Source of the DNA: Dolomedes plantarius
Lineage: Eukaryota > Arthropoda > Arachnida > Araneae > Dolomedidae
Reading direction: 5' to 3'
NCBI GenBank assembly: GCA_907164885.2
Contig: OU015497.1
Coordinates: 65,179,577-65,243,576, forward strand
Length of the DNA: 64,000 nucleotides
The translations under genes and the position numbers were made by a program. This document shows, in pieces, positions 7,673 through 57,693 of the stretch (position 1 is its first letter; each line of letters opens with the position of its first letter). The notes under the pieces were generated by a model. The model saw only the letters and a list, made by a program, of their open reading frames with translations, was not told the DNA's origin and ran no database searches.

Positions 7673-9838
<2,166 letters not shown>

Positions 9839-11660: not shown

Positions 11661-12862
11661 CACTCAAGAGCCAAAACATTATGACCACCCCTACATTTTG
11701 CAATGAATTCATCTGGATGACGTGGAAGGCACGTGATCAGGTGGAAGTGGTATTTAACTGCTGCTGGAGAGTCTGAAGAATCATTCTTTCACTTACTTCT
11801 GTGTGTGATGGGAAAGGCTGCGGATCTAAGCGACTTTGATAGATGGCAGATTGTAATGGCTCGAAGGCTCGGAACAAGTATTTCCGGAACTGCACGACCC
11901 GTGGGTTGTTCGTGACCTACAGTTGTTAGTACTTATGCTAAGTGGATGAATGACGGTGAAACCAGCAGTAGACAACATGGTGTTGGACGTCCACACTCTA
12001 TCGAAGAAAAAGGTCGTCGGAGACTGTCTCGCATGGTGAAGCAAACCCTCAGCTGACAGCCCAATACAATGCAGAGCCAAGTAGAATAGTATCGCAGCAC
12101 ACTGTTCAGCGGACACTGTTGGATATGGGGCTACGCAGCAAACGTCCCACTCTTGTGCCTTTGCTGACCAAGCGTCATCGCCAACTGCGCCTGCGCTGGG
12201 CCCGGGAACATCGCGACTGGTCCTTGGATCAGTGGGAGAGAGTTGCCTGGTCAGATGAATCACGGATTTTCATTCATCACGCCGTTGGCCGTGTCAGGAT
12301 ACGCCGTCTTCCAGGCGAACTGTTGCTCCCTCAATGTACAGTAGGTCATACACAGGCCGATGGTGTCAATATTATGCTTTGGGGGACGTTCTCTTGGGCG
12401 TCTCTTGGACCCGTGGTTGTGGTAGAGCAGACCATGAATGCTACAGGGTATCTGAACATCATTGCGGACCAGTTGCACCCTTACATGGCCTCTGTTTTTC
12501 CAGCTGGAAATGGAATGTTCCAACAGGACAATGCCCCGTGTCACAAGGCTAAAATTGTGTTGGAGTGGTTCCAGGAACATGATGCTTAATTCCAGTTAAT
12601 GTCCTGGCCGCCTAACTCATTGGATCATAATCCGATAGAACACATTTGGGATGTCATGGGACGCAGCTCAGAGTTCAAAGACCACCAATTCGCAATATCT
12701 TGTATTTGCGTGACCGTTGCTTAAACATCTGGTACAATCTGTCTCCGGCCATCTACCAAGGACTTGTGGCATCCATGCCAAGGCGGGTTGAAGCTGTGTT
12801 GCGCGCCAAAGGTGGGCCAACTAGTTATTGACAGGTGGTCATAATGTTTTGGCTCTTGAGTG
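11661..12862 (+). mobile_element. Tc1/mariner element (family b), full-length 1202-bp copy
   Basis: Both ends carry CACTCAAGAGCCAAAACATTATGACCAC as inverted repeats with TA on each side. It sits between two long TA arrays. It is the reference for the deleted copies at 559-1155 and 46471-47179. The transposase is on the plus strand (11808-12831). Confidence 0.93.
11808..12831 (+). pseudogene. Family-b transposase, DD36E-type spacing, three stops or shifts
   Basis: ATG at 11808 starts MGKAADLSDFDRWQIVMARR (HTH). A stop follows GCS at 11915, and a frameshift or deletion lies near 12035. The DDE domain then reads VAWSDESRIFIHH (first Asp), MFQQDNAPCHKAK (second Asp) and HNPIEHIWDVMG (Glu). I count 36 residues between the second Asp and the Glu, including one stop at 12587, so the spacing is DD36E rather than DD34E. 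The C-terminus [18 protein letters not shown] ends at TGA 12829. All three catalytic residues remain, so the copy is broken but not old. Confidence 0.87.
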
Positions 12863-15195
<2,333 letters not shown>

Positions 15196-16214
15196 GAAAT
15201 CACCGCTGCCACAAGCCTCGGCATTGATTCAAAGAGTCTTTGGATGAGTTCTTGGGGTACAGCAGACCAAGCAGCTTCCACACGTTGCCAAAGTTGATCT
15301 GTTGTGGCAGCTGGGGTGGAATCTGGGTCAATCGTAAAGCAACCATGGACCACATGTTTTCTATCGGAGAAAGATCCGGAGAGCGAGGCGGCCAGGGAAG
15401 CAATTCAATCTGGCGATTGACGAAGAACCGTTGGACAATGCGTGCCACGTGTGGTCGCACATTATTCTGTTGAAATATGGCTGTGGCAAGCCCTGAAGGT
15501 AAGGAAGGACAACTGGCTCCAATACCTCAGAGATGTAGCGCTGGCTGTTTAAAGTACCGGCAATGCGTACTACAGGTGTGCGAGAGTGATATCCAATACC
15601 GCCCCATATCATAATACCCGGTGCAGGTCCAGTGTGGCGGTGCATAACGCAGCTGTTCAGCATCCTCTCTTCACGGTGTCTCCAGACTCGAATGCGACCA
15701 TCGTGGTGTTGCAGACAGAAGCGTGACTCGTCAGTAAAGACAATTTCATTCCATTCTGCCGTCCACATCCTTCTGTCATCGCACCATTGGCGGCGGAGAC
15801 GTCTGTGGTTCTGCGTCAAGGGTAGACAAAGCAATGGACGTCTTGCGGACAGACCACTCTGCTGTAAACGGCGTCGAATGGTACGCGCAGACACTGGATG
15901 ATGCGTTACAGACTGCATGTGCTGTGCTATGGTTCGTGATGTGACTGAGCGATCCGTCACTGCCATGCGCACAATTTGCCTGTCATCACGTGAAGTGGTG
16001 CGCTGAGGTGGATGCGATCGAACACGCCGGTCCATCGTACCCTCCTGTATCCAACGATCACATATCCGCATTACAGTTGTTTGGTTTCGTCTAACACGAC
16101 TACCGATTTCCCTGAAAGATCATCCACAATCTCGGTAGGCCACTATCCTTCCTCTGTCGAACTCGGATACTTGATCAAAAGATGATCGCTGTTTTCGACG
16201 AGGCATAATTGATC
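15196..16214 (-). pseudogene. Tc1 transposase (family f), one stop and two frameshifts, second catalytic Asp changed
   Basis: Translation from about 16207 reads MPRRKQRSSFDQVSEFDRGR. A TGA replaces Trp at about 16124. A long open stretch (16071-15450) covers the second HTH and first catalytic Asp (EWNEIVFTDESRF) and MIWGGIGYHSRTP. A one-base loss in PYFQQ near 15480 shifts the frame. In the other frame the second acidic residue reads QQNNVRPH, so Asp has become Asn. The Glu is kept in LSPIENMWS, with 34 residues between. Another shift follows, and the C-terminus ends at the element junction. Confidence 0.85.
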
Positions 16215-16869: not shown

Positions 16870-18366
16870 CTAGTTATCAAAAATTAAGGAAAAATCCCAA
16901 GAAGAGGGATAACACGTTCAAAACTAGGCCAATCTGGTTAAAATTTGGATATGTTGTTAAGTAAAAGGTGATAAACAATACTACATTATGCAAAATAGTG
17001 ACGCTGCAGTCAGAATACGTCATTTGCGAGGAGCATAAACGTGCATGTCTCAGAGCTATTCGGCAATTGTCGCTGTGACGCTGAGGTTAGACATCTGGAA
17101 TAGCAAAATTGCAACAATGACATCCAGGCATTATTTGAAGGAAGAACTGCGATTCCGAGCTATTGGGAGACAAGAGGCAGGACAAAGTCAGACAGAAGAC
17201 GCCAGTTGGCTAAATGTACGTCTGTGGTTCATATACTTTAGCAACAATTTCTAATCACGGATTCAGCATCCAGGAGGTTCAGTCAAGGACGGCCATACGC
17301 TACCACGAGTACCGATGACCAAAATTTGTCATTATGAGCACGAAGGAATAGAACCGCAACTCCGTCTGTAAGCTCCGTCTGCAGATCCTCCCTCGCAGCA
17401 ACATCTGGAAGGTTGGTATCAACGTCAACCGTGCGTAGAAGGCTTCACGAAAGTGGTCTTCTTGCGAGGCGATCAGATATTTGCGTCCCGTTCATGGCAC
17501 GCCATAGGCGGGAACGTTTGCAGCGGGCACGTCAACATGTCCACTGGACACGTGATCAATGGAGGGCTGTTCTCTTTACGGATGAGTTCCGTTTAGCCTC
17601 CAAAGCAATAGTAGGCATATTTTGATTTGAAGAGAACCTGGAACTCGATTTCATCCATCATACATCCGTGAAAGTGATGCAAACAAATCAGGCAGTGTCT
17701 GTGTTTGATGTGGTATCTCTTTGGGTGGACGTACAGACCTCCATGTGTTTCCCCGTGGAAATGTGAATACTCACATCTATAGAGATCACATCATTGATGC
17801 TTATGTGCGCCCTTATGCCGGGGCAATAGGTGATGCTTTCGTGCTACAGGAGATAACGTGAGATCGCACAGGGCTTGCATCACGAATGCTTATCTTGAAC
17901 TGGAAACAATTCAGCTCATGGAGTGGTCAGCTCGTTCACCAGACCTGAATCCTATCGCGCTTGTTTGGGACGATTTAGGACGACATATAGTTGCTTTCAA
18001 TCCTCCTCCTAAGACCCTAGCTACAATTTCAACTGCTTTGAAAGAGCAATGGCTCTCACTTACTACCGAACTCATAGGCCGCATAATTGACAGCATCACG
18101 CATCGCTGTATGTGCTGTATTGCTTCTCGGGGGGATCATACGCCATATTAAAGGTCATTTTCCTTTATCAAACTGACAGATCCTATTTGTTCATTGTATA
18201 CATATGCTAGTTTCTATAGCACCATAACTGTCTGGCGATTTCTTTTTATGCTATTTTATACCTACCTATGTGTTGTATAAAGTGTATAAGTTTCATTAAA
18301 TTCTATGAGAAACTTTTTCGGTAATCGCTATTCTTTTTACTTTTCCTTAATTTTTTATAACCAGCG
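16870..18366 (+). mobile_element. Tc1-like transposon (family g), full length, 1497 bp
   Basis: The ends are CTAGTTATCAAAAATTAAGG on the left and, in reverse, CGCTGGTTATAAAAAATTAA on the right, with TA at both sides. The transposase on the plus strand belongs to the Tc1 family that I associate with spider genomes (HVHWTRDQWRAVLFTDE; CIASRGDHTPY). Confidence 0.87.
17117..18151 (+). pseudogene. Tc1 transposase (family g), catalytic Glu replaced by Ala
   Basis: From ATG 17117 the HTH part reads MTSRHYLKEELRFRAIGRQE. Shifts occur around 17215 and 17400, after which VSTSTVRRRLHESGLLARRS and the first catalytic Asp in AVLFTDEFRL are open. A stop follows at 17623, then SVCV and GISLGGRTDLHVFPRGNVN. 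The second Asp sits in DNVRSHRA just after another frameshift. The third motif reads SPDLNPIALVWDDLG, with Ala where Glu is expected. The C-terminus matches the family up to TAA 18149. Inactive. Confidence 0.87.
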
Positions 18367-25622: not shown

Positions 25623-26395
25623 GTGGTTATCAAAATAATGGAAACATTAAGGAATAACACGAAATTTTTCATTAATATGGCATAGGACCATCTATGGCAT
25701 TTAATACCACCTGAATTCACTAAGGAAATGAATTATGCAAGTCATGAATACTGGTTAATGGAATATTATACCATTCTTTAAGGATAAATCGTCAATGTTC
25801 CCGTAGAGATGCTGATGGTGGATATCCATTTCTGACTCTCTTCTCTAAAGCAGACCACAGCCGTTTTATGATATTGAGGTTTAGGGACTGTGCAGTCCTG
25901 AAAAGATGTTTGACTTGGTCTTTATGTTCCTCAAACCACGACCTAACACGTCTATCTGTATGGATCGGAGCATTATTATCGTGAAGAACGCTATCTCCTG
26001 CTTGAAACAATTTTTGCACCATAAGATGGATCTGGTCGGCTAAACGTTCGACATAGTCCCTCCCAATCAATCTCCCTTTCACGATTACAATAGATCCCTT
26101 TTGAAAACTATGAGATGGCCGCCGAAACCCTGAGAAATGTCCCTCCATGTTTGACAGTTGACATGGGAGAACATGATGATAAGCTTGTGTAGGTGTTCTT
26201 CAGACGTACGCACGTCCTGTTGCGGGGGAAGAAGTAAACAATAATTCATTTAGCCAACTGTTATATTTTGATGCATCACTCGACCAGAATAAGTGTGGAA
26301 CCACTGTAGAGGACGTTTTGTTTCCACATCTGTTACAAGTGGCTTGGGAATTAATTACTTTGCCATAAATGTTTTGTTTGTGAAGTTTTGTTGTG
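25620..26395 (-). mobile_element. Tc1-like transposon (family a), 3' two thirds
   Basis: The 3' end (left) carries CATGTGGTTATCAAAATAAT, the same terminal repeat as the element ending at 510. Recognisable transposase extends to about 26395 on the minus strand. No 5' inverted repeat was found to the right, so the copy is 5'-truncated or too decayed. Confidence 0.8.
25792..26395 (-). pseudogene. Tc1 transposase (family a), decayed DDE domain
   Basis: The clearest stretch is minus 26148-25792: VIVKGRLIGRDYVERLADQI, then LHDNNAPIHTDRRVRSWFEE and LNIIKRLWSALEKRVRNGYP. The second catalytic Asp is kept in LHDN. At the third position the usual I-E-x-L-W reads IIKRLW, so Glu has become Lys. Upstream, in other frames, lie FWSSDASKYNSW (a degenerate first-Asp motif, SDESKFN in relatives) and TKLHKQNIYGKV. 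Dead. Confidence 0.8.
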
Positions 26396-31599: not shown

Positions 31600-31910
31600 T
31601 AATTTAGTAGTAATAAAGTTAAGAGTAATGTGTAGATGCAGTACGACAGATTGTCATAATAATTGAATGAATTAAATATATGTGTCGTAGTAATGAAGTT
31701 GAGAGTAATACGTGTAGATGAAGTACGAAAGATTGTCAGAATAATTGAATGAATTAAATATATGTGTCGTAGTAATGAAATTGAGAGTAATATGTGTAGA
31801 TGAAGTACGAAGGATTGTAATGATAACTGAATGAATTAAATATAGGTGTTGTGGTGAATTAATTTAGTAGGAATGAAGTTGTGAATAATGTATAAATGCC
31901 GGAGGAAATA
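31600..31910. repeat. About 80-bp tandem repeat, three to four units
   Basis: GTAGTAATGAAGTTGAGAGT and ATTGAATGAATTAAATATAT recur at about 80-bp intervals (starting about 31606, 31687 and 31768, with a weaker fourth at about 31848). No coding function seen. Confidence 0.85.
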
Positions 31911-32101: not shown

Positions 32102-32338
32102 TTATAATTGACAATTCACTGCCACACTCTTCCTGCTGTGGACAGCTTGAGGATCGTCCCTTTTTAATATTCAGCAGTAATCCGCTATCATGTTAGCTTT
32201 AAATCCTCCTTGGTACCTTTTGTCCCATTTCCTTGATATCTTGATGGAACACTTCTCCCTGCTCTTCACTGACATCACCAAGATTTACAGGGTAGAAGTC
32301 AAGGTGTGTGTGGAGAAAATTAACTTTTATGCTCATAC
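32102..32338 (-). pseudogene. Repeat-family protein (HLDFYPVNLG motif), C-terminal part, split by a Helitron
   Basis: Minus-strand translation from the Helitron junction reads MSIKVNFLHTHLDFYPVNLG, then EEQGEVFHQDIKEMGQK, and after a one-base shift GGFKANMIADYC. A TGA follows in place of Trp, then ILKRDDPQAVHSRKS, with TAA at 32102-32104. The N-terminal continuation is at 43180-43686: joining the two across the Helitron restores G-C-N-M-S in frame. I recognise this as a multi-copy arthropod protein family found in repetitive DNA, but I cannot name its function. The copy was dead or died after the insertion. Confidence 0.75.
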
Positions 32339-33978
32339 TATCTGAAGTACCCGGCGTTGCCCGGGATTTAAAGAATGTTTGTTAACCAAAATCAATTTAA
32401 AATTTAACACAGTATAAATAACATAGAAAAAATATATGTGAAATGTTATACACATCTAAGAATTTAAGAATTTCAGCCTTTCATCATTGTAGCACTAAAA
32501 TCTGAAAAGTAAAAATGTCAAATTGTCTAATGTTTGTTAACCAAAATGAATTTAAAATTAAACACGGTTAAATATCATAGAAAAAAACATGTGAAATCTT
32601 ATACACATGAATAAAATAAAAACCCAATAAAAAATATATAAAATTTTAATAAACTCCTCAGAATTCAGCTAGATTTAGCGTTTTATCCTTTGGGCAAAAA
32701 AAGAAGCTGAAATTACAGATTTAGCAGAAATTTCCAATAGAACCATGAAATGACTCGAGCGTTGCCTCTTAAAAAATGAAGTGTTTGATTGAGAGCAGCA
32801 AATCGTTCAACTCCTCTCCACATTAAACTCCTATAAACATCCTCTACATATTAAATTCCTTTTCTCTCCATAATTAACTCCTCAGAATTTTGGTATATTC
32901 AGCCTTTCATCATAGTACCACTAAAAACTGAATCATCCTCTCCAGAAATATAAATTTATTAATTACAATAATTAAACTCACAAAAATGTATAGATTACAT
33001 AAAAGTTTTTTAACCAACATTTGAATAATTCGTAAACGAAAAAGCATATGAAAATAAAGATAATAAGAACTTTCGAAATCGAAATTAACTACCCTTAATA
33101 TTTAATTAATAAAAAACCAACATAATATGAATAAAAACGATAGTTGCTTAAAAGTATATGAAAATAAAGCTATTATAAAGATAATAATAAAAAAAGCATA
33201 TGAAAATAATGCTCGCGCATGAAGTTAACGTTGCGATATAAACATAGTAATAATAATATAAACCACGTGCATAAAATATTTAGCTTTTCAAGCGAAATAA
33301 ATTAATTTTTAGAAAAAAACTACTTTTAATCGAGAAATTAAATACATTGCACAAAATTTTGATTTTACCAACTTTCTACCCTACAATTTACACCCTACTT
33401 CTTTGAAGTTCGGTGTTGAAACATCCTCTTTGAAAAATTTACGCCCTACTTCTTTTTTTAAATAGGGTGTAAATATAAAGTTTTAACAGCCAATTGAATG
33501 CCAGTTAAAAATGATTGTTCTTTAAAATCATATGAATATTACGGTATTATAAAGATAATAAAAAAAGCATAGGAAAATAATGCATACGCATGAAGTTAAC
33601 GTTACTATATAAAGATAGTAATAATAATCTATATATATAAAACAGTTCCGTAACTGACTGACTGACTGACTGGCATACAACGTACAGACCAAACCGCGGG
33701 ACCTAAAGGGCTGAAATTTTGCATGGCGATTCTTCTTATAGTGTAGGGGTGCACTAAGAAAGATTTTTGAAAATTCTTCTTAGATATTTTAAAATTAAAT
33801 TTTTAATTTGTTTTAGTAACTTTTTTTACGTTTGCATTTAAAATAATAATTTGAGGGTTATAAAATTTATATCACGAAAAAGATCAGAAAAATTCCTTTA
33901 AAATGAAATCTTTTTCGAATCTTTACCTCCATTTTATGATTTTTGGTAAATTTTTAAAGATTAATTCTTAGAATTTAA

Positions 33979-35372
33979 CCTCTTACATGCCGCACTATGA
34001 TCCAGGAATAAAGTACCATATTTTGCTGCGTAACTTTGGTCGATAACTTCCAGGAAGTCGGTCCAACAGGTGAACTCCACCCATTCCTTTATTATATAAT
34101 TTTATAATGTAAGGAAAATCAACTTTTTTTATCTCGGACATATCTTTTGTTCTTCCTAATGGTTCATGAGTGATAAAATTTGATGTAATATATACAACAG
34201 AACTATCGTTCCAATGGCACATATAAACTTCTCCATCGCATCGGTAATCAAATTCTCCAAGTTGAAATTTAGACATTTCTTTTGCTGTTTTAAGAGGACA
34301 TTGTCCCATTATAGAATCTCGTACTATGCCGATTGCCTTAAAGCCTTTGTTAGATGAATCTGTCAGCAGACTGTGCGATGTAAAAAGTTGTAAAAAAATA
34401 TGTGTTTCTTTGGATTGTCAATAAAATCCAAGCAGCAAATTTTCCTGTTTCGAACTTTTACCACCGTAGATAGACATAGCATAAGGATAACCATTTGCTG
34501 AGCAGATCATCCAAACTTTGAAACGAAAGCGAATTGGCTTTCCACATATGAACACCTTAGCCGAACGATGTCCATAACACGGAAACATGGATTCATCGAT
34601 ACTCATATTTTCATGAAAAAATCCAAATTGACGAAAATTTTTTCCAATCTCTTTATAAAATGTTTCATAATTTATCACATGGTTCCAATTTACTATTATC
34701 AACAATGTTGAAATACTTTTTTAACATCCGAAATTAATTTCTGGGCATTGTATTGCTAACAATTAGGATATGGAAATCTTCCTGAGAGCTCCAATGTGTA
34801 TTTTCATCAGTTACTGAGTGGTAGCCACAAAACAACAGTAATCCAAGAAACTGCTGAATGTCATTTGCATCGATGTCCAAAGAGTCTCCTTTTTGTAGGG
34901 ATACAGCTTTGTAACTTCGGCTGAATTTTCTAAGTAATCAGACGGCAGAATCACTGATCGCGTGTGATATCACTGATTTTGTATATCGTTACATACCAAT
35001 GATCCTTTTTTGGAACATTGCATTTTTAAGCAGTCTTGAGAAACTATTTCTTGTTATTATTTTAATTTATTTTATTAACTCGTTAAAATTGTCCTTTGCA
35101 AGTACGATGGGGAAATTTTTGGGTGGATTTGAATTTTCAGGTATTTTATAAAATTTCTTTTCTTACGAACTGTAAAAATTGTAAAAAAAAAGCCGATCTT
35201 TAGAAATTTTTCTACGCTAAAATATTTATATTTGAAAAAAAAATTATATCTAAAAATCAATCATGCCTTCTGTAATAAACGGTATTTTTTTCAAAATGTA
35301 AGACATCACAGTTTATTTTTAAAAAAATATTAAACATGATGTTCCAAAAAAGAAACATTGGCATGTAAAAGG
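33979..35372 (-). mobile_element. piggyBac element, 1394 bp, TTAA duplication, inside Helitron B
   Basis: TTAA stands on both sides (33975-33978 and 35373-35376). The inverted ends are CCTCTTACATGCC and, in reverse, CCTTTTACATGCC. The second Helitron B copy has one TTAA at this point (GAATTTAATTTATTAAATGC, about 55984), the empty site. The element is shorter than usual piggyBac (about 2.4 kb). The N-terminal half of the transposase is missing. Confidence 0.92.
33995..34720 (-). pseudogene. piggyBac transposase (PGBD-like) remnant, one catalytic Asp lost
   Basis: Minus 34705-34418 gives FGFFHENMSIDESMFPCYGH (the Asp of SIDES is the first DDD residue) and SAKVFICGKPIRFRFKVW. After a frameshift, minus 34309-33995 gives QCPLKTAKEMSKFQLGEFDY, WNDSSVVYITSNF and YNKGMGGVHLLDRL. 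The conserved GGVD is GGVH, so the third catalytic Asp is replaced by His. The second Asp region (DNFF...) is broken. The Cys-rich C-terminal zinc domain is not found. Confidence 0.88.
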
Positions 35373-35729
35373 TTAATTTATTAAACGCTGATCACGTGCA
35401 TTCTTTTTCCGGTACTTTAAATAAATTTATCGTCACATAACAACGAAATAGACAAAAAAATAATTTTTTCTTGCTAATGCGGCAGACGATTCGACATTAT
35501 CCAAAAAAAATTAAAATCATGTTAAATATGTTTCTCAAACTGTACTATATTAACTATACTATATTCTTTAGTATGTCCTATGAGATTTAATTTGAATATT
35601 TTCTTCTACATTATTTTGTCTATAAAAATAACCCTTACGATTTTTTTATAAATATATTATTTTGTTTTTTTTACATCATTTGTATACATTGATCGCCGTA
35701 CTTATTTTATATATATATATATATATATA

Positions 35730-36640
35730 TGAAATAAATTTAAAACTATTTTTATTGTTTAACACGCCCTTTCCAAATTCTTCATCTTAACGCAACAGAA
35801 TACCGTCCCTGAACCTTGGATTGCGACCTAAATTCAACCAATATAAATCTATTTTTCCCCTAAAGCTGTCCCCTAAAGCTGTTACCACGCGCGGACCATT
35901 ATATAACAGTTATATAAGATCGAACCGGGTCGAACGCTCGAGAAACATCATCCGACAAGACGCGCTAGGGTCATGTGTTCGCTTCTGGCCAATTAAAAAG
36001 TCAGTGCGCCCATACCTGGCAGATCTTGGCGCTCTTTCTGCACTCTTTGTGTTCGAACCATGAAACTAACATGACGTAAGTTGAGCCTCCGTCCATATCT
36101 CGCAGTGCTCTGCGCTGACGGGGCCTTTTTTCCCGACATCGGTGGAATTAAACTTGTTATAATTATACTGTTATAATCCAAAATCTAAACTTGTCTAAAT
36201 CTAATCTAAACTTTTTATAATCCAAAAAGATGTCCAGCATCATTTTGGTAAATAAAACACTATTTTGTGACCTGATACCTCCTTCCATGGCGTTGAACTC
36301 AGTTATTCTCTTCATTTGCCAGCCACTTGTGTGTGAAAACAGCCTAACTACAACATTACGGATCAAAACGGAACTTTCCCGATCAATCATCCTTTTGGAG
36401 GTATTACATAAAAGTCGCGTTGGATGGGGAGTCCATCCGTAAAAATGAAAGTGAACTGTACATACGCCTAATCTGCAACGCTGTCCAATTTGTGATGATC
36501 CGTTAATTTTAAATATCGTTTCTGATGTTGGAGTGCACCGATCCTTCATTTCGCCTGCCCTTGTGCAATGACTACAGAATTGTCAGAAATACTACGAGTT
36601 CACCGGCCATTTGCATCGCCCCGCAACAGTAATCATTACA
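35730..36640 (+). repeat. 5' LTR of a nested retroelement (911 bp)
   Basis: It begins TGAAATAAATTTAAAAC next to a TA array and ends CAGTAATCATTACA, giving TG...CA ends. It is repeated in direct orientation at 40870-41710. The two differ by small indels, including about 55 bp extra at 36165-36225 here, plus point changes. A 108-128-codon frame is kept on the minus strand in both copies but has no recognised similarity. Confidence 0.82.
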
Positions 36641-38230
36641 ACAAGTCGGCAAGGATGGTTTCCTTCCGCGGGTAGATCCCCAGTTGGATTTCGAAGGCCA
36701 TGTTCCAGAGGTGTTTTTTTCTTCTAAGGAGAGATTTTTCCCCTTCGTTCGTCGTGTGTGCTTCGTGCGTGAGAATTTCTTTTTGTATTTCCTCGCGAGG
36801 AGCAGTTAGGATGTGCGATTTTCGACGACGGGAATGCAGAGGTGTTTTGTTTTCATCTGGATCGGCGGTTGTGAAAGAATTAAAATTTAGTGTGTGTGAA
36901 AAATTGGACGTCGGCGCTAGTTTTTTTTTTTCGTAGTGATCATGCTTCATGTAATCATGATTTGTGAATTTTGTGTTTCCGTGATGTGTGAAATGTTTGA
37001 CTCGGATGGAAACGGAAGAGTAAGAAATATTGTACAATTAAGAGTAAATCCAAAACTCGAGAGAACTCTCGGACATCATGTAAATTTAGAGGAATGACGC
37101 CAAGGACTTTTACGCGATTAAACCAATGTGCTGAAGATTTCCTTTTCTAATTAAATTGAATATTGATTTTAAAATAGTAATGAAAAAATTAAAATATGAT
37201 ATAAGGATTCTAAAGGTAAGTTAATATTTGTGAAGTAGTTTTAAAAGTGAAGTGATTTTACTTAAGTTACATTTTAATAAAAAATTATTATGAGTATATT
37301 TTAATGTAGTAAATAAAATGTTATTGATATTATATGTTTTAAATTTGGTAATAGTAGAATTATGTTAGTAAAGTTGAATAAATATGAGTAAATTAACATA
37401 ATTTATCAAGTAAATAATGACTTAAAGTTTTGAACAAAGCATGAGTAATTTCGACATGCTTCCTCAATTCACATACGGATCTGAGTTTTAAGTTGATTAT
37501 TATGTGATTATGAAAAGTACATGAATAATAATGAGAAAGGAAGTTTTCTGAATATTATAATAGGAAAAGTTGAAAGTTTACAATATAAGGATGTGGTGAT
37601 AATTTGATTCCATACTTTAAGATCTAATTTGCTTTTGATATATTTTAATGACCTCATTTATTGCTTATTTTAGTTCCACTGATTGATTTTTAGTGTGTTA
37701 TGAGATATTAAGTGCTATTAATAAATTGAAGAAGATATTAATATTTAGGATGATCATATTTTAGTGATTTAGTATGTTATGTTGTTATATGCACAGATGA
37801 GAAATAATATTTAGTGTCAATACCAGTGGTTTAATGTTTACATTTTTGTTTTGAAATTTTGTGGTACATATATTGCATAGAGATGGAATGTGCTAAATAA
37901 AAAAGTTTGAGAGTTTTTGTTAAACTAGGACTGAGAAGTGGTTAATAACCTCAGAAAAACTGTGTTTGAAAACTGTGTTCAGAAAAACTTTTAAACAAAT
38001 ATTCTCAGGTACAACAAGTTATCAAGTGTATGTTTAAAATATTTTGAAATTCTTTATTTTATATTAACAATTTTGATATTTTTGAATTTTGATGGGCCTT
38101 AGCTATTTAATAAGTGATTATTTTTTGTATCCGGATACTCTCAACAATAAACAATATTATACCTTAAGAGGAGATCAGGCCATCCATTAAAAATAAAAAT
38201 ATGAAAGATAAATGTGAATTCCTAGATATA
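36641..38230. other. Interior of the LTR element, 5' part, noncoding
   Basis: The first 300 bp are less AT-rich with a 78-codon frame (36700-36936 plus) of no known similarity. The rest is AT-rich with many stops. Confidence 0.6.
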
Positions 38231-39546
38231 CAGAGGCTGTTCACACATTTTTTAAACGATGTATATTGTATTCACAAAACTAAATTATTTTAAATTCTTG
38301 TGTTTTAAATGTTCTATTTGACATCCCTTATTCTGAACTATCTTTCGACACCGCAATTTCCAGGATAATAATGCTTTTTGAAGTGTCAGAAGAGGTATTC
38401 TATCCCATTCCTCCTGAACAGCTTTCCAGAGTCCTGTAAGGGTTTTGGGACGACGTTTAGATAATGCAGATTTTAAAAGTCCGAAAGCACAAAAATCCAT
38501 AGGTGATACATCGGGAGATTTAGTAGGGATATCAGTGAAGGGTATGGCCTTGATACCAGTTTTTTGTTCCATTTCTTTTAGGAAATTTACAGTGGATTTT
38601 GATGTGTGACTGCTAGCTTTGTCCTGATGGAGTCTCACAGATTGATGGCACTGTGGATAAAGCGATGGTATTTCATTCAGAAAAATTCGAGATAAAATAT
38701 ATTCCTGATAGTATTTGGAGTTAATCTTGACATTTTTTTCCACTCTCTTTATTTTTAACTTGCTATTATAAGAAAAACGAGCAACAATCATGAATCCCTT
38801 AGAAAAACTTTCTTTCGATTCTTTGAACCATGTACTTAAATTTTTTCTCCCCTTTTATGATAATAAATGGCTCTTTTATTGTTGCAATCATTTAAATACA
38901 CCCATGATTCATTCATCTATTGTGACAATTGTTTTCCATTTTTCTTTGGATAAGTGTTTCTCATATAGAATTCTGCAGCGTGTCCTGCGTTCAACGATAT
39001 GATTTGGGAGAAGACGATGCACATTACGTTTTTTCGCTTTCTTAAGATTTAAATCAGCGTTTATCATTTTGTTTACAGTGGACACCGAGCATTTTAATGA
39101 TTTTGCAACTGTCCTTTGACTAGGGGGATTTTCTTTTAACATTAAATAACGTACCTTTAAATAGTCGAAGATTCATTAGTCGAAAGTTCATTTATTCCTT
39201 CGATACTTGGTTGGAATTTTTGTCCCTCTTGAGGCTCCAATTTGACGTTTTTTCCTTTCTTGTTGACGATATTACCTATCGATGCTTTAGATATCACAAA
39301 ACCATGACTCTCAAATCGTTTTTGGATAACGGAGTATGCATATTTCTCTTCGGAAAGAGCATGAATGTAGCCTTCGAACCACTGCTTTGTTAAAAACGCT
39401 ATTTCGAATAAAAACAAAACTTTCAAGCCGCAGATGATAATTTTGACTTTTAAAAACATAGTACAATTGCAATTATTTCTTTTGCAGCAAGCGATTTTTT
39501 ATTACCGCTTACCAAAATCGTCTAAAAAATGTGCGAACAGCCTCTG
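38231..39546 (-). mobile_element. Mariner-superfamily DD41D element (family h), 1316 bp, inside the LTR element
   Basis: The inverted ends are CAGAGGCTGTTCACACATTT and, in reverse, CAGAGGCTGTTCGCACATTT, with TA on both sides. The transposase fills most of the minus strand. The ends are nearly perfect and the protein has only a few lesions, so this is among the youngest insertions in the nest. Confidence 0.92.
38285..39459 (-). pseudogene. DD41D transposase (rosa/VISITOR-like), three open pieces
   Basis: The N-terminal piece (39459-39157) reads LTKQWFEGYIHALSEEKYAY and SKASIGNIVNKKGKN. A frameshift near 39165 leads to LKENPPSQRTVAKSLKCSVS (HTH) and the first catalytic Asp in KTIVTIDE. A 4-bp direct duplication (GATGAATGAA, about 38910) then breaks the frame. 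The last piece (38791-38285) holds the second Asp in RLHQDKASSHTSK and the third in SPDVSPMDFCAFG. I count 41 residues between them, the DD41D spacing. The tail is NKGCQIEHLKHKNLK. All three acids are intact. The first 25 codons are uncertain. Confidence 0.88.
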
Positions 39547-40869
39547 TATATGTTAAAGTGATCCTGTATTTTTTTCTATCATAACCCTTTATATATTTTT
39601 TCCCTAATCTACCCTATTATCACATAAACGTGTACTCTTCTAACTAAATTCGAATATTTAAGAAAATTAATGATTTAAAACAATTTGCATCGAATTAAGT
39701 CAAAGAAATTTTTTCTTTCTGTAACCTAATCTCAACTTAATTGAAATTTAATTCCTTGTGAGTCGGTTCGACCCTGACCACAAATATGATATAATTCAAA
39801 TCCCAATTAAGTTGGTTAGACCCCGACCAAAATTTAATTTAATAATAATAAATCTTTGTGATTCGGTTCGACCCCGAACGCAAAATAATCCTATAACAAC
39901 CCAACCAATGGTAGCTCAGTGGGCCTGAATTTAGTGCGTTTTCGCCGGGCCTCTGCGGAATTTCACACCGTAGATTGTCACATTTGGAGACCTAGGCTAA
40001 GTTCATTGCTCCAGTAGTGTAAATCCATTTCTCCCTAACTTAATAAAATTAATGTTGAGTGTTTTGGTTGACGGAGAATTTTAAAACAACTTATAAGAGA
40101 ATTATTTTTAAAATCTTGTTTTTCCTAATTGAACTGTATTTTTAAAATTTATTTTATTAATTTGTTTCCATGGTGCATTTGAAAAAATTATAGTAGAAAA
40201 ACCTTTGAAGCTATTTACAAAAAAATTTAAGTAATTGAATTTACTAACCATAATGAAGCCTAAACCTGAACAGCGACCAACCTCATGAACCAGAGATCCT
40301 TTTTCAATTTTCATTTTTATTTTGGGGTGCCTAACACCTCTTGACTCTAGACTAGACCTTGAACTAGATGGTTAAACTTTGCGTGTCGTCCAAATAAAAA
40401 AAATATAAAAAATCTATCTTTTAAACTTTCTCTTGTAACCCGACTATGACAATTTTAAATTTTTTGTTCTTTTGAGTGTTTAAGTACTTATTTCATACGA
40501 AACAAGTGTTGTAATTTATTGTGTTCCTTAATATGTATATATTTTTTTCATTCCATTCTAAAGTGTATATTCAAGTTTTGTGAACATTGACTTACTCACA
40601 TATTCATCTTAGCATGTAACAAGTGTATTGATATTTTTATTTTGTTTTGTAATACTTTGTGATATATTGTATGATATTGCCATGTCTGGTGCGAACAAAG
40701 AGGTGATATTCTAAATTCTAAAATCCTAAACCAAAATTTTTCAAAAATTACTCCTCAAAAATGTTATTCCCAAATTTAATCTTTTTGTTACGTGGGTCTC
40801 GCCTGATGGAGAGCCTTGCTGAGGGAGTCGGCCCCTCATGCAAGTCTTTTCCGGAAGGGGGGGGGAAAT
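39547..40869. other. Interior of the LTR element, 3' part, ending in the polypurine tract
   Basis: This part is AT-rich. Three imperfect repeats of GGTTCGACCC-GA-C occur at about 39762, 39815 and 39866. TGGTAGCTCAGTGGG at 39908 resembles a tRNA A box, but no B box is placed to match. It ends with the purine tract at 40854-40869. Confidence 0.6.
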
Positions 40870-41706
40870 TAAAATAAATTAAAAAATTTTTTATTGTTTA
40901 GCACGCTCTTTTCAAATTCTTCATCTTAACGCAACAGAATACCGTTCCTTAACCTTGGATTGCAACCTAAATTCAACCAATATAAATCTATTTTTCTCCT
41001 AAAGCTGTTGCACGCGCGGACCATTATATAACAGTTATATAAAATCGAACCGGGTCGAACGCTCGAGAAACATCATCCGACATGACGCGCTAGGGTCATG
41101 TGTTCGCTTCTGGCCAATTAAAATGTCAGTGCGCCCATACCTGGCAGATCTTGGCGCTCTTTCTGTACTCCTTGTGTTCAAACCATGAAACTAACATGAC
41201 ATAAGTTGAGCCTCCGTCCATATCTCGCAGTGCTCTGCGCAGCCGGGGACTTTTTGCCCGACATCGGTGGAATTAAACTTGTTATAATCCTACTATAAGA
41301 TGCCCAGCATCATTTTGGTAAATAAAACACTATTTTGTGACCTGATACCTCCTTCAATGTCTTTGAACTCTGTTACTCTCTCCACTTGCCAGCCACTTGT
41401 GTGTGAAAACAGCCTGACTACAACATTACGAATCAAAACGGAACTTTCCCGATCAATCATCCTTTTGGAGGTATTACATAAAAGTCGCGTTGGATGGGGA
41501 GTCCATCCGTAAAAATGAAAGTGAACTGTACATACGCCTAATCTGCAACGCTGTCCAATTTGTGATGATCCGTTAATTTTAAATATCGTTTCTGATGTTG
41601 GAGTGCACCGAGCCTTCATTTCGCCTGCCCTTGTGCAATAACTACAGAATTGTCAGAAATACTACGAGTTCACAGGCCATTTGCATCACCCCGCCACAGT
41701 AATCAT

Positions 41707-41710
<4 letters not shown>
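40870..41710 (+). repeat. 3' LTR of the nested retroelement (841 bp)
   Basis: Direct copy of 35730-36640. It starts TAAAATAAATT, where the 5' LTR has TGAAATAAATT, so the terminal G has changed. It ends CAGTAATCATTACA before a TA array. Confidence 0.82.
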
Positions 41711-41749
<39 letters not shown>

Positions 41750-42437
41750 TTATATATATATATATATATAGGCATTAAATGCATACACAGACATTGTATT
41801 TAATTTGAATGTACTGCGTAGCGAAGTGCGGGTTTTCAGCTAGTATATTATTAAGATAAATTACAAATGGGTTGGAATTCTAAAAGTTTAAAATAATGGC
41901 ACCATCTACTGCACGTCTGTGAATCGAGAGTCGCATCCTTCAAAAATTGTTGGTTATTTATTAATGAATGTTTGTTAACCAAAATCAATTTAAAAACTAA
42001 ACACAGTATAAATAAAATAGAAAAGATTTAGCCTTTATCATTGGAGCAAAAAATCCTGAAAAGTTAAATATAAAATATATAAATTTATAATAAACCTACC
42101 AAAATCCATTAAAAAAATTAAACACAGTATAAAAAACATAGAAAAAAAGCATACGAAATGTTACACTCATTAATAATATGAAAACCCAATTTAAAATATA
42201 AATGTATAATAAACTCCCCAGATTTCAGCTATATTCGGTCTTTCATCATAAAAAAGCTGAAAAAAAATAAAATAAAATAAAAATGATAATTTAAAAATCA
42301 ATAAAATAAAATAATAATAATAATTTTAAAAAAATAATAATATAAAATAAAAATAATAATTAAAAAATAATAAAATAAAAGCTGAAATAAAAAAAAGTCT
42401 TCATAAAAAGCAAAAATTAAAGTTTAGCAAAATTTGC

Positions 42438-42508
42438 ACGATCCCGTATTCGAACCCGTGTCGTACAGGGTACCACGCGCGCGGTTTTACCGAATGCGCC
42501 ACAATGAC
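42438..42508 (-). other. tRNA-like sequence inside Helitron A
   Basis: On the minus strand TGGCGCATTCGGTAAAACC (42501-42483) resembles an A box and GGTTCGAATAC (42456-42446) a B box with two changes. The 45-50 bp spacing fits a tRNA. The acceptor ends GTCATTG and ACGGGATCG do not pair, so a working tRNA is unlikely. It may be a captured pseudo-tRNA or SINE head. Confidence 0.45.
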
Positions 42509-43129
42509 ACACTACACTCTTGAGTAAAGTAAAAGATATTCACACTGAGTTTTTTGAAAAGTTGCTATGGTTTGGTGAATATACATGCATTTATAGAGTA
42601 AGAGGAGTTTTAAGTGAGAAATAAGTTAACATGATAGAAGCTTAGTCTTTAACTCTTCAATAGACACAAAGATATAAGCGAGGGGGATTGCAGTAGCGAC
42701 TAAAAAAGATCTCGTGACACTTAGCGCGGTTGATTCGAATTTTCCATCGCGTGTGAAGAGTGTCAATATGCCGTTGGATCTGATCTATTTTAGAGTATAA
42801 AATCTGACTTGAAAGATAATTATTTTCATTTATTATTCGGGTTTAATATATGACTTGAAACTGTTTGATTGTATTTATTTTTCTATCGTTTTTGCTTCTC
42901 GCTGTTCTTTAAACCTAACATGTCGGCCTTTCAAATTGTGTACACGGCTGGGTGGCTCTTCCCTTTCTAGATTCACCCTTCAAAAATTGTTGGTTTTTTA
43001 TAATTAAAAATTAACGATAATTAATTTCGATGTTGGAAGTTCTTAAGACCCTCGGCTGTTTTTAAACACGCCTCTATGTAAAATTTCCCGATCGTTGCTC
43101 CTAAACTGTGGATTTCTATACAATTATAG

Positions 43130-43155
43130 ATAGATAGATAGATAGATAGACAGAC
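43130..43155. repeat. (GATA)n/(GACA)n near the Helitron A 5' end
   Basis: A TAGATAGATAGATA run passes into CAGACAAACA. Such short GTCT/ATCT repeats next to the 5' terminus are common in arthropod Helitrons, and Helitron B has (GACT)n in the same place. Confidence 0.85.
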
Positions 43156-43179
43156 AAACATTCATTTTTATATATCAGA

Positions 43180-43686
43180 TTACAACCCAGCTTCATGAAG
43201 TTGTCTAGCATGTCAGCGACGATTGACTTGTAATTTGGGTCCTTTTTGTTTCCCTGAAAACTGGTTAAAACTAGTTCAAAAGATACCTATGCGCTTTTTT
43301 CTTTTGTTTCCATTTCTTTTCTCAAAGCTGGCATCCCTCATTAGTTTTCTGATGTCAGGTCCGAAAAACACTCCTTCTTTTATCTCTACCTCCCATAACC
43401 CAGGAAATTGCTCACAAAGGTATTATCTAAAAATTCTACTTCTTTTGGCAATACCTTGACAAATTGTTTCACCAAACCCAATTTAATGAGTAGAAGTAAT
43501 GCCTTTTCGGGATCTACAAGACTCTTCCTCTCAACATTTTTAACTCCAACCTGCAAGGTTTTCCACGGCGGCCATTCTTTCTTTATATAATATTGCTTCC
43601 TGTCACGACTGTCCTATTCCCAGAGAAAGCAAGGGAACTTTGTGTAACCAATCTGTTGACCAAGCAACATTTAAAGCACTTAACTA
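43180..43686 (-). pseudogene. Repeat-family protein, central part, continuing at 32338-32102
   Basis: Minus-strand translation reads MLLGQQIGYTKFPCFLWE, a stop in place of Trp, DSRDRKQYYIKKEWPPWKTL, VDPEKALLLLIKLGLVKQFV and, after shifts and stops, GNKKDPNYKSIVADMLDNF then MKLGCN at the Helitron junction. The motifs LLGQQ-GYTK, C-F-L-x-x-W-D-S-R and LGL-K-FVKAL are shared by a multi-copy arthropod family I have seen in repetitive DNA. Its function is unknown to me. The 5' side is lost at about 43690, where a piggyBac fragment on the other strand begins. Confidence 0.78.
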
Positions 43687-43689
43687 CTA

Positions 43690-44102
43690 CAAAAACTACT
43701 AAAAAACTACTACAAAAATTGTTAAAGAAAAGAAAAAACCTATTCGTTCGGCTAAATCATATGATTGAAAGAAGTCCAAGGCAACACAGATGCAAATTGG
43801 AAGGATTTTCATACAAAACTACTTCATTTTGTGAGAAATGTGACGTATTTTTATGTTTTCATGCACAAAGAAATTGTTTCAAAATGTTTCACACAAAATA
43901 ATTGTAAACTGTATTTAAAATAAATTTTCACTTTTTGCTTAATTATAGCCTGGTGTCCTATTATTAGAAATTTTTTTAATTAGTTTGGTAATTGGCAGAA
44001 ACGTTATAATATTTTATATTTTAGATACTTACATATAGTGTAGCATATCTAACCACTCATTGATTTTTTATCTGCCCAATTAAAAATTCAGGGCCGAAGG
44101 GG
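43690..44102 (+). mobile_element. piggyBac 3' fragment with zinc domain and TTAA end
   Basis: Open codons 43760-43901 encode SPRQHRCKLEGFSYKTTSFC then EKCDVFLCFHAQRNCFKMFH and TAA. This is the Cys/His-rich C-terminal domain of piggyBac transposases. The 3' untranslated part ends GGGCCGAAGGGG at 44102, followed by TTAA, the expected target. No matching 5' end was found, so the element is truncated on the left. It is a different family from the one at 33979. Confidence 0.8.
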
Positions 44103-44154
44103 TTAAATCGCCACTAATCATCCATTTATGATATGAATAACAAATTTTCTTTAA

Positions 44155-44892
44155 GGGGTCAGGTACCTTTTAAAAGCTCAGAGACTCGACAAAGATATCC
44201 CTAGTTTAAATCATCAGTAGTCATGAATATCTTTCATTCAGGAATATGAAAATTTTACTGCGAGTTATACATACTTTCATCTTTATAAATATGGCTCTTA
44301 ATTTTTTCTAGCTTGAACATTATTTTTTTGTTTTTAAAAATTTCAACCATTGTATTTTTCAATGTTATGTTATTGAGCGCAGACTTGCGCTGTATATTAA
44401 TGAATATACATATTTTTTATTTTAAAAAATTAAGTTGTGTAATATATCTTTAAAATGACGAACTTTGAAATCAACATTTTTAGTTCTTCATATAAATAAA
44501 AATGTTTTTTTTAAATTATAAATTTCAGAAATTTTCTTGAAAACTTTTACCGTAATTAAATTATTTATGGTAGGAATGACATAATGGTTCGTCAATTTCA
44601 TGATACATGTTTATATTGAACGTGTATAAACTTTCATGGTGTTCTAGTCAACTGTTCTGGTGACATCATGTGTGTGCAATGACATAACAATGAAAAAACA
44701 ATGGTTCAAACTTTAAACAATTAAAAAATTTCTCTTCAAGCTAGATCAAATTGAGAGCCATAATTGTAAAGAAGGAAGAGTGTTTAACGCACAGTAAAAT
44801 TTTCATATTTCTTAATAAATTATTTTAGTAACTACTGATGATTGAAAATAGGGTTTGTCGAGTCTCTTGGTCTTTAAAAGGTACCCGACCTC
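44155..44892. mobile_element. Long-TIR MITE with TTAA duplication, 738 bp
   Basis: TTAA flanks both sides (44151-44154 and 44893-44896). The ends GGGGTCAGGTACCTTTTAAA and, in reverse, GAGGTCGGGTACCTTTTAAA begin inverted arms that stay alignable for about 200 bp (GAGACTCGACAAA; ATCATCAGTAGT; AATATGAAAATTTTACTG; ATGGCTCT-AATTT). There is no open frame of note. TTAA targets are used by piggyBac and Kolobok; the long arms leave the superfamily open. Confidence 0.85.
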
Positions 44893-44896
44893 TTAA

Positions 44897-46470
<1,574 letters not shown>

Positions 46471-48011: not shown

Positions 48012-49330
48012 CACTCATGGACAAAAAAATTAGCACACCAAGAAGGAGTCTTCAAAATGAAACGAAATTTTTCATACGTAATGACTACTTTGATATAAGT
48101 AAATGATAAGAAAATCAAAGAAAAAGGATAATTTATTTCAGAGAAAAAGGCAAAAGAACGGAGGAGTTAATACTTCGTTGGATCCCCTCTAGCGCGAATG
48201 CACGATGCGATACGATCGGGCATTGAGACATACAAGTTCAGTATGATGTCTTCAGACATTTCGTCAAATCTGGGGATCGGGCAGGCCAAGGAAGGGTAGT
48301 AACAGTGCGGAGACAGTCTTGTGACACCCTTGCCGTATGAGGCCGAGCATTGTCTTGTTGAAAAATGGCTCCTGGGAGCCGTTGCATGAGTGGCAACACA
48401 TGTGGTTGCATGATTTCATGAACATACCGCTGGGCTGTCATGGTGCCACGGAACAATACTAGGGGTGACCGTGTATTGTAGGCAATGGCACCCCATACCA
48501 TCACACCAGCTGTGGGAGCGATGTGTCGCTGTACAGCAAAGGCAGGATTGAAGCGTTCACCACGGGCTCTCCACACACGAACACTATTGTCATCACTGCC
48601 GATATTGAATCTGGATTCGTCGCTAAAAACGACCTGGTTCCATTCCGCTGCAGTCCAGTTTCCTCGTGCTCGGCAAAACTCCAAACGGAGGCGTCGATGG
48701 GTGGGCGTCAAGGGCAGCGCATGTAATGGGCGCCGCGATACCAACTGTTCTTCAGCCAGGCGCCTTCGTATGGTTCGAGAAGACACAGAGGCCCCTAGTG
48801 AAGGTGCTACCTGCGCATGGATGGTGGCCGATGAAGCAGTTGGCTGTACGCGTGCATTTCTTACGATGTGGCGGTCTTCTCGACGACTGGTCTGTCGAAG
48901 GCATCCTGAGCCTTGTCTTCGCGTACATGACATCTCTCGGGTCCACTGGTCCCAACACCTCCTCACAACACAATCAGATCGGCCTAATTGACGAGCTACT
49001 CGCCTAGCTGACCACCCAGCTTCCATCGTCCCGACGATTCTCCCCTTCTCAAACTGCGACAACTGCTTATATTGTCTTCGAACACGGCATAATGGCATGT
49101 CTATCTCAGCTCTTCCTTTGTAAATGATTCAGCACACTCAAACAAGCTTTGGTTACTTGTTTTATACTCCACAGAGTACGATGTTCAACGCCCTCTACCG
49201 GCTATACGTAATGCGCAATCACGCTGCATTTCTAATCATTTGCATATCACCCCGACATGTACCTTCATTGCAAGTTTCGTTACGATCCCACAATTATTTC
49301 TTGGTGCGCTAATTTTTTTGTCCATGAGTG
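48012..49330 (-). mobile_element. Tc1 transposon (family e), complete 1319-bp copy
   Basis: Inverted ends CACTCATGGACAAAAAAATT, identical on both sides for 20 bp and similar for about 32 bp, flanked by TA. The transposase occupies the minus strand. Near-identical TIRs and a long open frame make it one of the youngest Tc1 copies in the window. Confidence 0.94.
48167..49098 (-). pseudogene. Tc1 transposase (family e), near-intact but deleted across the catalytic Glu
   Basis: From Met at 49098 the frame is open for 286 codons: MPLCRVRRQYKQLSQFEKGR (HTH), the second HTH with VSSRTIRRRLAEEQLVSRRP, the first catalytic Asp in WNQVVFSDESRF, GVMVWGAIAYNTRSP, and the second Asp in IFQQDNARPHTAR. After LPWPARSPDL, sequence that should encode the P-I-E-H-V-W-D region is missing. 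The rest, FDEMSEDIILNLYVSMPDRI to GDPTKY, continues in another frame to TAA at 48167. The loss removes roughly 35 codons including the third catalytic residue, so it cannot catalyse transposition although it could still bind its TIRs. Confidence 0.92.
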
Positions 49331-49403: not shown

Positions 49404-50648
49404 CAGTACCCTACAATAATGGACCGGACAGCAAGATGCGTTGGTATAAGGGAAAAAATACATGCTTTAATAGGGGATGGTCCCCCCACGTGCTGTAGTT
49501 ACACTATCAATTCTTCTGGGCATACTTTCAACAAGGTTTTAATACTCAACTGTGAGTATTTGTGTCCATTCTTGATGCAAGAATGTCTCCAGATCAGCTG
49601 CAAATTTCAGACGTAATTCCCTGGTCCGGGAGCGTCGCTCGAACTCGTCCCACAAATGTTCTATGGGGTTTAGATAGGGAGCAGGCCAGGGAAGACTTTT
49701 ACATCCATATCTTGATACCACTGATTGATAGAGGATGCAACATGAATGAAGCGTTGTCGTCCTGAAGTAACTTTCGTCCATTCCGTAAAAGTGCCAGAGC
49801 GTAGAAAGAATTTGATTGTCCAAAATGTCCATGTAGACGTCAGTATTCAGTTTACCAGGAACAATACACAAAGGTTCCAGACCATACCACGAAAAATACC
49901 CCCAAACAAATACAACACCACCATAGAATTTGAGAGTTGAAACTATGAACTCTGGTAACAGATTTCTCCTGGCATTAGGGAAACCCAAGCACGCCCATCC
50001 GACTGGAAGAGCGTGTAGCGTGACTCGTAGCTCCATAAAAAAAAGTCTTCCAGTGGTCCACAGCCCACTTGAGACGTTGGAAACACCAAGCGAGTCCACC
50101 GGCTTGTTGGATGGGGTGATGTTTGATTTTTGTGCGACAACACATCCTTGGATATTGAGGGCGTGCATTTCTTTCCGCAAGGTATTGGGGTGCACCGTAA
50201 CCCCTGCTGCCTGTTGAAACTCACTGTTGATGTTTTGAAGTGGTTTCTTGCAGTTCTTACTAACCTCAGGTTTTAGGACACGCCGATCCCGTTCGATCAG
50301 TTTATGGGGACGACCAACGTATGCAGTTCGTGTCTAAACCTCTGTAGTCTTCCACTTGTTCACGACATTACCAACAGTTGACCGTGGTTGTGATAATTCT
50401 ACCGCAAATGCCAGATTAGACATACCACTAATGTGACAACCAACTGTAACACCTCTTTCAAACTCACTAAGTTCCTTTCGTTTCGACATAATGTCACATT
50501 TTCACACAGAACTAATGACGTTACCACTTCGCGTATCGTATTTGACCTTAACAGACCACGTTCGAGCACTGTATTTTCATAAAATCTGACATGTAGTCGA
50601 ATTTTATGCAAATTGACTAGCACAAATCGACCATTAATGAAGGTAGTG
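49404..50648 (-). mobile_element. Tc1-like transposon (family i), about 1245 bp
   Basis: The left end CAGTACCCTACAATAATGGA and the reversed right end CACTACCTTCATTAATGGTC are diverged inverted repeats, each next to TA. Between them lies a minus-strand transposase. Identification of the right end is by partial similarity only. Confidence 0.78.
49539..50489 (-). pseudogene. Tc1 transposase (family i), decayed
   Basis: Met at 50489 starts MSKRKELSEFERGVTVGCHI (HTH), broken by a stop at about 50337 (TTEV then TAG). The second HTH reads VTVHPNTLRKEMHALNIQG. The DDE part has VGWACLGFPNARRNLLPEFI, VVFVWGYFSWYGLEPL, the second acidic motif in another frame (QDDNAS, about 49765) and the Glu in YLNPIEHLWDEFERR. 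The first catalytic Asp motif is not recognisable (VSNVSSGLWTTGRLFFMELR). The tail HQEWTQILTVEY ends at 49539. Confidence 0.83.

Positions 50649-55614: not shown

Positions 55615-57693
<2,079 letters not shown>

What the first reader, a model, noticed from the sequence alone, without database searches (positions are those of the whole stretch)
32102..43686. Five-level nest of transposons readable as a dated stratigraphy
A decayed repeat-family gene is split by Helitron A. Helitron A is split by Helitron B. Helitron B holds both a piggyBac (33979-35372) and an LTR element (35730-41710), and the LTR element holds a DD41D mariner (38231-39546). Helitron B pieces of 351, 357 and 133 bp add up to the length of the intact copy at 55615-56472. 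Four transposition mechanisms are ordered in time within 11 kb.
Basis: partly seen in the sequence, partly recalled or inferred. Interest (0 to 1): 0.82.

Follow-up and report, generated by a model that had tools for sequence, protein, structure and literature searches.

The report
Five-deep nest of dead transposons
In this stretch of animal (probably spider-like) DNA, a broken gene was interrupted by a rolling-circle transposon, which was hit by a second one, which received two more elements, one of them hit again, so the order of most events can be read directly; such nests are common, and the real surprise is that the bottom gene resembles RAG1, the enzyme that cuts our antibody genes.

Summary
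Chain: transposase-like gene > Helitron A (32338-43179, minus) > Helitron B (33628-41843, plus) > LTR element (35730-41710) > DD41D mariner (38231-39546). A piggyBac (33979-35372) is a second, separate insert in Helitron B. Best proof: the flanks of Helitron A rejoin in frame (GCN|MSIK) and align collinearly with uninterrupted homologues; Helitron B copy 2 (55615-56472) holds the empty piggyBac site with a single TTAA.

Nesting, and reading its order, are established knowledge, so interest is modest. The genome search did not complete; no other genomic copies or reads were examined.

The parts
32102..32337 (-). Downstream (C-terminal) part of the decayed RAG1-fold transposase-like gene; homology seen over 32126-32337
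   Evidence: tblastn of P0066, P0065, P0095, P0101; frames
43180..43679 (-). Upstream part of the same gene, with frameshifts and stops; homology starts at residue 68 of P0066, earlier residues not found in the window
   Evidence: tblastn; frames; in-frame rejoining GCN|MSIK with the left part
32338..43179 (-). Helitron A, whole interval; its own DNA is 32338-33627 plus 41844-43179 (2626 bp), longest open stretch 64 aa
   Evidence: TC 5' end, hairpin plus ATAG 3' end (DNA fold -5.3 kcal/mol, z -1.98), A|T insertion site
33628..41843 (+). Helitron B, whole interval; own pieces 33628-33978, 35373-35729, 41711-41843
   Evidence: TC...CTAG, A|T site, three collinear pieces against 55615-56472
33979..35372 (-). 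piggyBac element with broken transposase, TTAA at 33975-33978 and 35373-35376
   Evidence: PF13843 in three ORFs, E 1.3e-15, 5.4e-10, 1.8e-6; empty site in copy 2 at 55988-55991
35730..41710 (+). LTR element, non-autonomous; 5' LTR 35730-36640, 3' LTR 40870-41710, polypurine tract just before the 3' LTR (40853-40868)
   Evidence: no Pfam family above cut-off in the 12 open stretches scanned of 18 listed
38231..39546 (-). DD41D mariner with broken transposase, flanked by TA
   Evidence: end repeats; 41 residues between D2 and D3; 61 homologues among 94 candidates
55615..56472 (+). Second Helitron B copy; reference with the empty piggyBac site

Best explanation
A transposase-like gene, probably of a RAG1/Transib-type DNA transposon, was hit by Helitron A (rolling-circle insertion between A and T, no target duplication). 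Helitron A was hit the same way by Helitron B. Helitron B then received, in unknown relative order, a piggyBac at a TTAA and a non-coding LTR element in a TA repeat. A DD41D mariner then landed at a TA inside the LTR element. Shown: the nesting, the ends and two empty-site tests. Inferred: that each was a separate event of the standard mechanism of its class, and that the base gene was mobile.
For: In-frame rejoining of the gene across Helitron A: the read-through query aligned over 100% of its length at 65% with P0065; 453 of 497 candidates had E <= 0.001. Exact empty piggyBac site in Helitron B copy 2: of 625 trial joins the five best, tied, are the TTAA and its 4-bp ambiguity. Collinear Helitron B pieces. 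LTR pair with TG...CA and polypurine tract. Mariner end repeats and DD41D. Divergences agree with the order: LTRs K80 0.048 (SE about 0.007), Helitron B against copy 2 0.074 (SE about 0.011; two of three pieces). Weak support: Helitron A's internal repeat reads through the Helitron B site, but the two sides agree for only about 4 bases beyond it.
Against: No second copy of Helitron A, the LTR element or the mariner lies in the window, and the genome search did not complete. Target duplications of LTR and mariner are uninformative in TA-rich sites. The two divergences differ by only about two standard errors (my arithmetic). Helitron A's 3' end reads ATAG, not CTAG. The hairpin of nested Helitron B is not its best fold. 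For the base gene: hhalign with RAG1 negative, no PDB sequence match, no inverted ends.
Confidence: 0.88

Rival explanations
1. Assembly artefact: unrelated repeat copies were joined by the assembler.
For: Repeat-dense, TA-rich region; no reads or second assembly could be seen.
Against: Ends fall on class-specific sites (A|T, TTAA, TG...CA, TA) and the gene resumes in frame 10.8 kb away. A misjoin within the TA tracts next to the LTR element remains possible.
Confidence: 0.04
2. Part of the nest moved as a unit: for example Helitron B already carried piggyBac or LTR before it entered Helitron A, so insertion order and nesting order differ.
For: Helitrons can carry foreign DNA (recalled); entry of inserts into B and entry of B into A are logically separate.
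Against: The one other Helitron B copy seen is empty; an 8.2-kb loaded Helitron B would have to transpose whole.
Confidence: 0.08
3. The base layer is a host gene (multi-copy or domesticated family), not a transposon gene.
For: No terminal repeats found around it; no mobile-element name among the 120 listed homologues; profile comparison with RAG1 negative.
Against: RAG1-like fold in two models, DDE plus CxxC/HxxxxH conserved, several distinct copies in each of two spiders and relatives in two wasps, a tunicate and a frog (named rows).
Confidence: 0.15

Closest known systems
Nested transposons and interruption chronology (TRANScendence, PMC5657132; TinT, PMC3014933)
   Same: Order of insertion read from who interrupts whom
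   Different: A single locus with several classes of element; no genome-wide matrix could be made
Insect and spider Helitrons (Hel1/Hel2, PMC6544945)
   Same: 5' TC, 3' CTRR type end, insertion between A and T; related elements reported in two spiders
   Different: Sequence families not compared with theirs; Helitron A's 3' end reads ATAG
DD41D/VS Tc1/mariner family (as named in PMC8472432)
   Same: 41 residues between D2 and D3, TA site
   Different: No tree with named VS elements was made; this copy is dead
RAG1 / Transib / Chapaev transposase core (PMC4411706, PMC4914335)
   Same: Compared with RAG1 only: fold over the core; D, D, E plus CxxC and HxxxxH; D-to-C 19, C-to-C 3, H-to-H 5 residues as in RAG1
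   Different: H-to-E 17 against 20; no profile-level sequence match; ends and target duplication unknown; Transib and Chapaev not compared

Membership tests
Helitron (A and B) | 5' TC and 3' CTRR ends, insertion between A and T without duplication | tested here: met
   B: TC...CTAG, A|T; A: TC...ATAG (first base of the 3' motif differs), A|T, gene frame restored
Helitron (A and B) | Hairpin just before the 3' end | tested here: inconclusive
   Best fold in A (z -1.98) and in B copy 2 (z -0.54, 49 of 200 shuffles as good); not the best fold in nested B (z 0.39)
Helitron (A and B) | Rep/helicase protein in autonomous partner | not tested
   A has no open stretch over 64 aa in its own DNA; B's own DNA was not scanned for ORFs; partners could not be searched
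piggyBac | TTAA duplication, matching short inverted ends, DDE_Tnp_1_7 transposase | tested here: met
LTR retrotransposon | Two long terminal repeats with TG...CA | tested here: met
   911 and 841 bp, 4.6% different; the 3' copy begins TA instead of TG
LTR retrotransposon | Polypurine tract before 3' LTR | tested here: met
   GGAAGGGGGGGGGAAA at 40853-40868
LTR retrotransposon | tRNA primer site after 5' LTR | tested here: inconclusive
   No TGG directly after 36640 by eye; no tRNA set compared
LTR retrotransposon | gag-pol coding region | tested here: not met
   No Pfam family above cut-off in 12 of 18 open stretches listed at 48 aa or more; no sequence search for decayed gag-pol beyond that. 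Filed as a non-autonomous element, superfamily unknown
LTR retrotransposon | 4-6 bp target duplication | tested here: inconclusive
   Site is (TA)n on both sides
DD41D Tc1/mariner | 41 residues between D2 and D3; TA-flanked inverted ends | tested here: met
   the Pfam match (DDE_3, E 0.0066) is below its cut-off
DD41D Tc1/mariner | Groups with VS elements in a tree | not tested
   No named VS sequence was at hand
RAG1/Transib-type transposase (base gene) | RAG1-core fold | tested here: met
RAG1/Transib-type transposase (base gene) | D, D, E and CxxC, HxxxxH | tested here: met
   21 of the 24 rows with letters in all seven columns; 35 rows examined, 11 lack one or both of the first two columns. 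The window copy has lost one C and one H
RAG1/Transib-type transposase (base gene) | Detectable sequence homology with RAG1 | tested here: not met
   hhalign probability 0.3%, profile (Neff 2.3) against one RAG1 sequence; no PDB match of the profile at E <= 1. For scale, RAG1 itself reaches the solved Transib transposase only at E 0.0033. Therefore described as RAG1-like in fold and motif, not filed as a member
RAG1/Transib-type transposase (base gene) | Terminal inverted repeats and short target duplication | tested here: inconclusive
   None found around this truncated copy: best score 11, 20 shuffles 0-14, exact 10-base seeds; flanks of other copies not available

The most novel reading that the evidence does not exclude
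The base-layer gene belongs to a large, unnamed family of RAG1-fold DDE transposases present in arthropods, a tunicate and an amphibian, not recognised as such so far and distinct from Transib and Chapaev.
Probability: 0.22. Interest if true: 0.62.

Novelty: new member of a known kind. Interest (0 to 1): 0.33.

Why it matters
As a nest it is a clean teaching example and a usable local marker: four successive insertions in one chain, most with base-exact ends, and an empty site in the same window. It does not change what is known about nesting. What may matter more is the bottom layer: a protein family with 453 homologues found, no Pfam domain on the 120 listed, and the RAG1 catalytic and zinc residues. 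If it is mobile, it would add to the RAG1 relatives used to reconstruct how V(D)J recombination arose, and would let genome projects stop annotating its copies as uncharacterised host genes.

Tried and rejected
Searching the window's own genome: nine attempts with the same request, none answered. Copies in other collections: for the base gene 10 and 9 stretches of viral contigs and 94 of prokaryote genome contigs matched a pattern, none was confirmed; a Helitron B 34-mer had no match in viral contigs. Terminal inverted repeats around the base gene: none above shuffles. Sequence match of the base family to RAG1 by hhalign: none; to any PDB chain by profile: none. The solved Transib transposase (6pqn and five others) and RAG1L (6b40) appear in the sequence search with RAG1 but not among the 50 rows shown for either model; this absence is not evidence that they differ. 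Motif strings of the base family in the paper library: 0 papers; Repbase and subscription papers were not searched, so 'unrecognised' is not established. Coding domain in the LTR element: none above cut-off in the 12 stretches scanned. piggyBac homologues: 3 of 8 candidates, none named, so no age could be drawn from them. ARAGORN and Rfam (gathering scores) on the whole window: no hits. Papers: PMC6544945, PMC8472432, PMC5657132, PMC4411706 and PMC4914335 were seen as passages found by term; all others, PMC3014933 included, as listings and abstract starts.

Full report
What was checked. The finding claims a nest of transposons at 32102-43686. I read the sequence, compared the region with the whole window, aligned each Helitron B piece and the two LTRs with their partners, and tested junctions in scripts. 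The claim holds.

Base layer. On the minus strand, protein homology runs over 43679-43180 and continues over 32337-32126. The right part ends ...GGTTGTAA and the left part starts TATGAGC..., which join to GGT TGT AAT ATG AGC, reading GCN-MS in frame. A read-through of this one broken protein (190 residues) had 453 homologues among 497 candidates at E <= 0.001 (120 listed); the best, P0065, aligned over 100% of the query at 65%. In an alignment with 8 of them the joint lies in a gap-free conserved stretch around LGCNM. So Helitron A split a gene that its relatives have whole.

Helitron A. Minus strand, 43179 (TCTGATATAT...) to 32338 (...CCCGGGCAACGCCGGGTACTTCAGATAG). Its 3' hairpin folds at -5.3 kcal/mol, 10 of 200 shuffles as good. 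It sits between A and T, as described for Helitrons (passages of PMC6544945). Own DNA 2626 bp, longest open stretch 64 aa: non-autonomous. No second copy in the window.

Helitron B. Plus strand, TC at 33628 to CTAG at 41843, between A and T. Pieces of 351, 357 and 133 bp match 55615-56472 in order. An internal repeat of Helitron A at 33170-33300 reads ...TAATAATAATATA where the other repeat copy is cut by Helitron B after TAATAATAA; beyond the cut the two agree for only about 4 bases, so this is weak support. Divergence from copy 2: 23 of 307, 18 of 276 and 5 of 60 aligned bases for the three pieces, repeat-rich stretches left out; the first two joined give 41 of 583, K80 0.074.

piggyBac. 33979-35372 between two TTAA. 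The second Helitron B copy reads TTTAGAATTTAATTTATT with one TTAA. Of 625 trial joins of the two flanks the five best, tied, are the TTAA and its 4-bp ambiguity. Three ORFs match PF13843 at profile positions 28-80, 106-184 and 211-333; their coordinates imply at least one frameshift and one in-frame stop.

LTR element and mariner. 35730-41710 with TG...CA, LTRs of 911 and 841 bp, 39 differences in 841 aligned bases, K80 0.048, polypurine tract before the 3' LTR. No coding family above cut-off in the 12 stretches scanned of 18 listed. It lies in a TA repeat, so its duplication cannot be seen. The mariner, 38231-39546, has 30-bp ends with 2 mismatches and 41 residues between D2 and D3, as in the DD41D/VS family (passages of PMC8472432); its reading frame is broken. 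Of 94 candidates 61 were homologues: 3 named Stegodyphus, 9 Araneus, 1 Diploptera, 48 without an organism name. The host is therefore probably an arachnid; this is inference.

Order. Nesting gives: gene, then A, then B, then LTR, then mariner; and B, then piggyBac. piggyBac cannot be ordered against LTR or mariner. The two divergences agree with B before LTR but differ by only about two standard errors, and no clock is available, so the locus is ordered in part and not dated. Reading order from interruptions is established (TRANScendence, passages of PMC5657132; TinT, listings).

Verdict. Real and cleanly resolved, but of a known kind. The stratigraphy needs two corrections (partial order; mobile-looking base). 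The RAG1-like base family is the part worth following.

Noticed in passing
43684-44102: Likely second piggyBac relic directly beside the base gene: P0064 residues 169-207 match 43773-43895 (E 0.001) and the DNA ends CAGGGCCGAAGGGG followed by TTAA; base-gene homology stops at a TTAA (43680-43683). No Pfam hit, and no matching inverted end seen on the left.
   Followed up: partly
44150-44897: Palindromic element with arms of about 225 bp, about 79% alike, and TTAA at both ends, like a piggyBac-type miniature element.
   Followed up: no
42440-42510: Stretch in Helitron A that looks like a tRNA-derived piece (A- and B-box-like) by eye; ARAGORN does not call it.
   Followed up: no
8700-9161, 11972-12586, 14728-15120, 15364-16119, 48241-49128, 49542-50333: Six Tc1-like transposase ORFs (PF01498; the one at 49542 below its cut-off); also a DDE_3 ORF at 25795-26199 and a reverse transcriptase (PF00078) at 5684-6340.
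   Followed up: no
9041-9580 and 17631-18139: Weak matches to relatives of the DD41D mariner transposase (22-28% identity); the first overlaps the Tc1-like ORF at 8700-9161, so these are probably Tc1-type relics.
   Followed up: no
39749-39884: Three copies of a 36-bp unit (69-100% alike) with GGTTCGACCC-like cores inside the LTR element.
   Followed up: no
31607-31875: About three copies of an 82-bp tandem repeat next to the nest.
   Followed up: no
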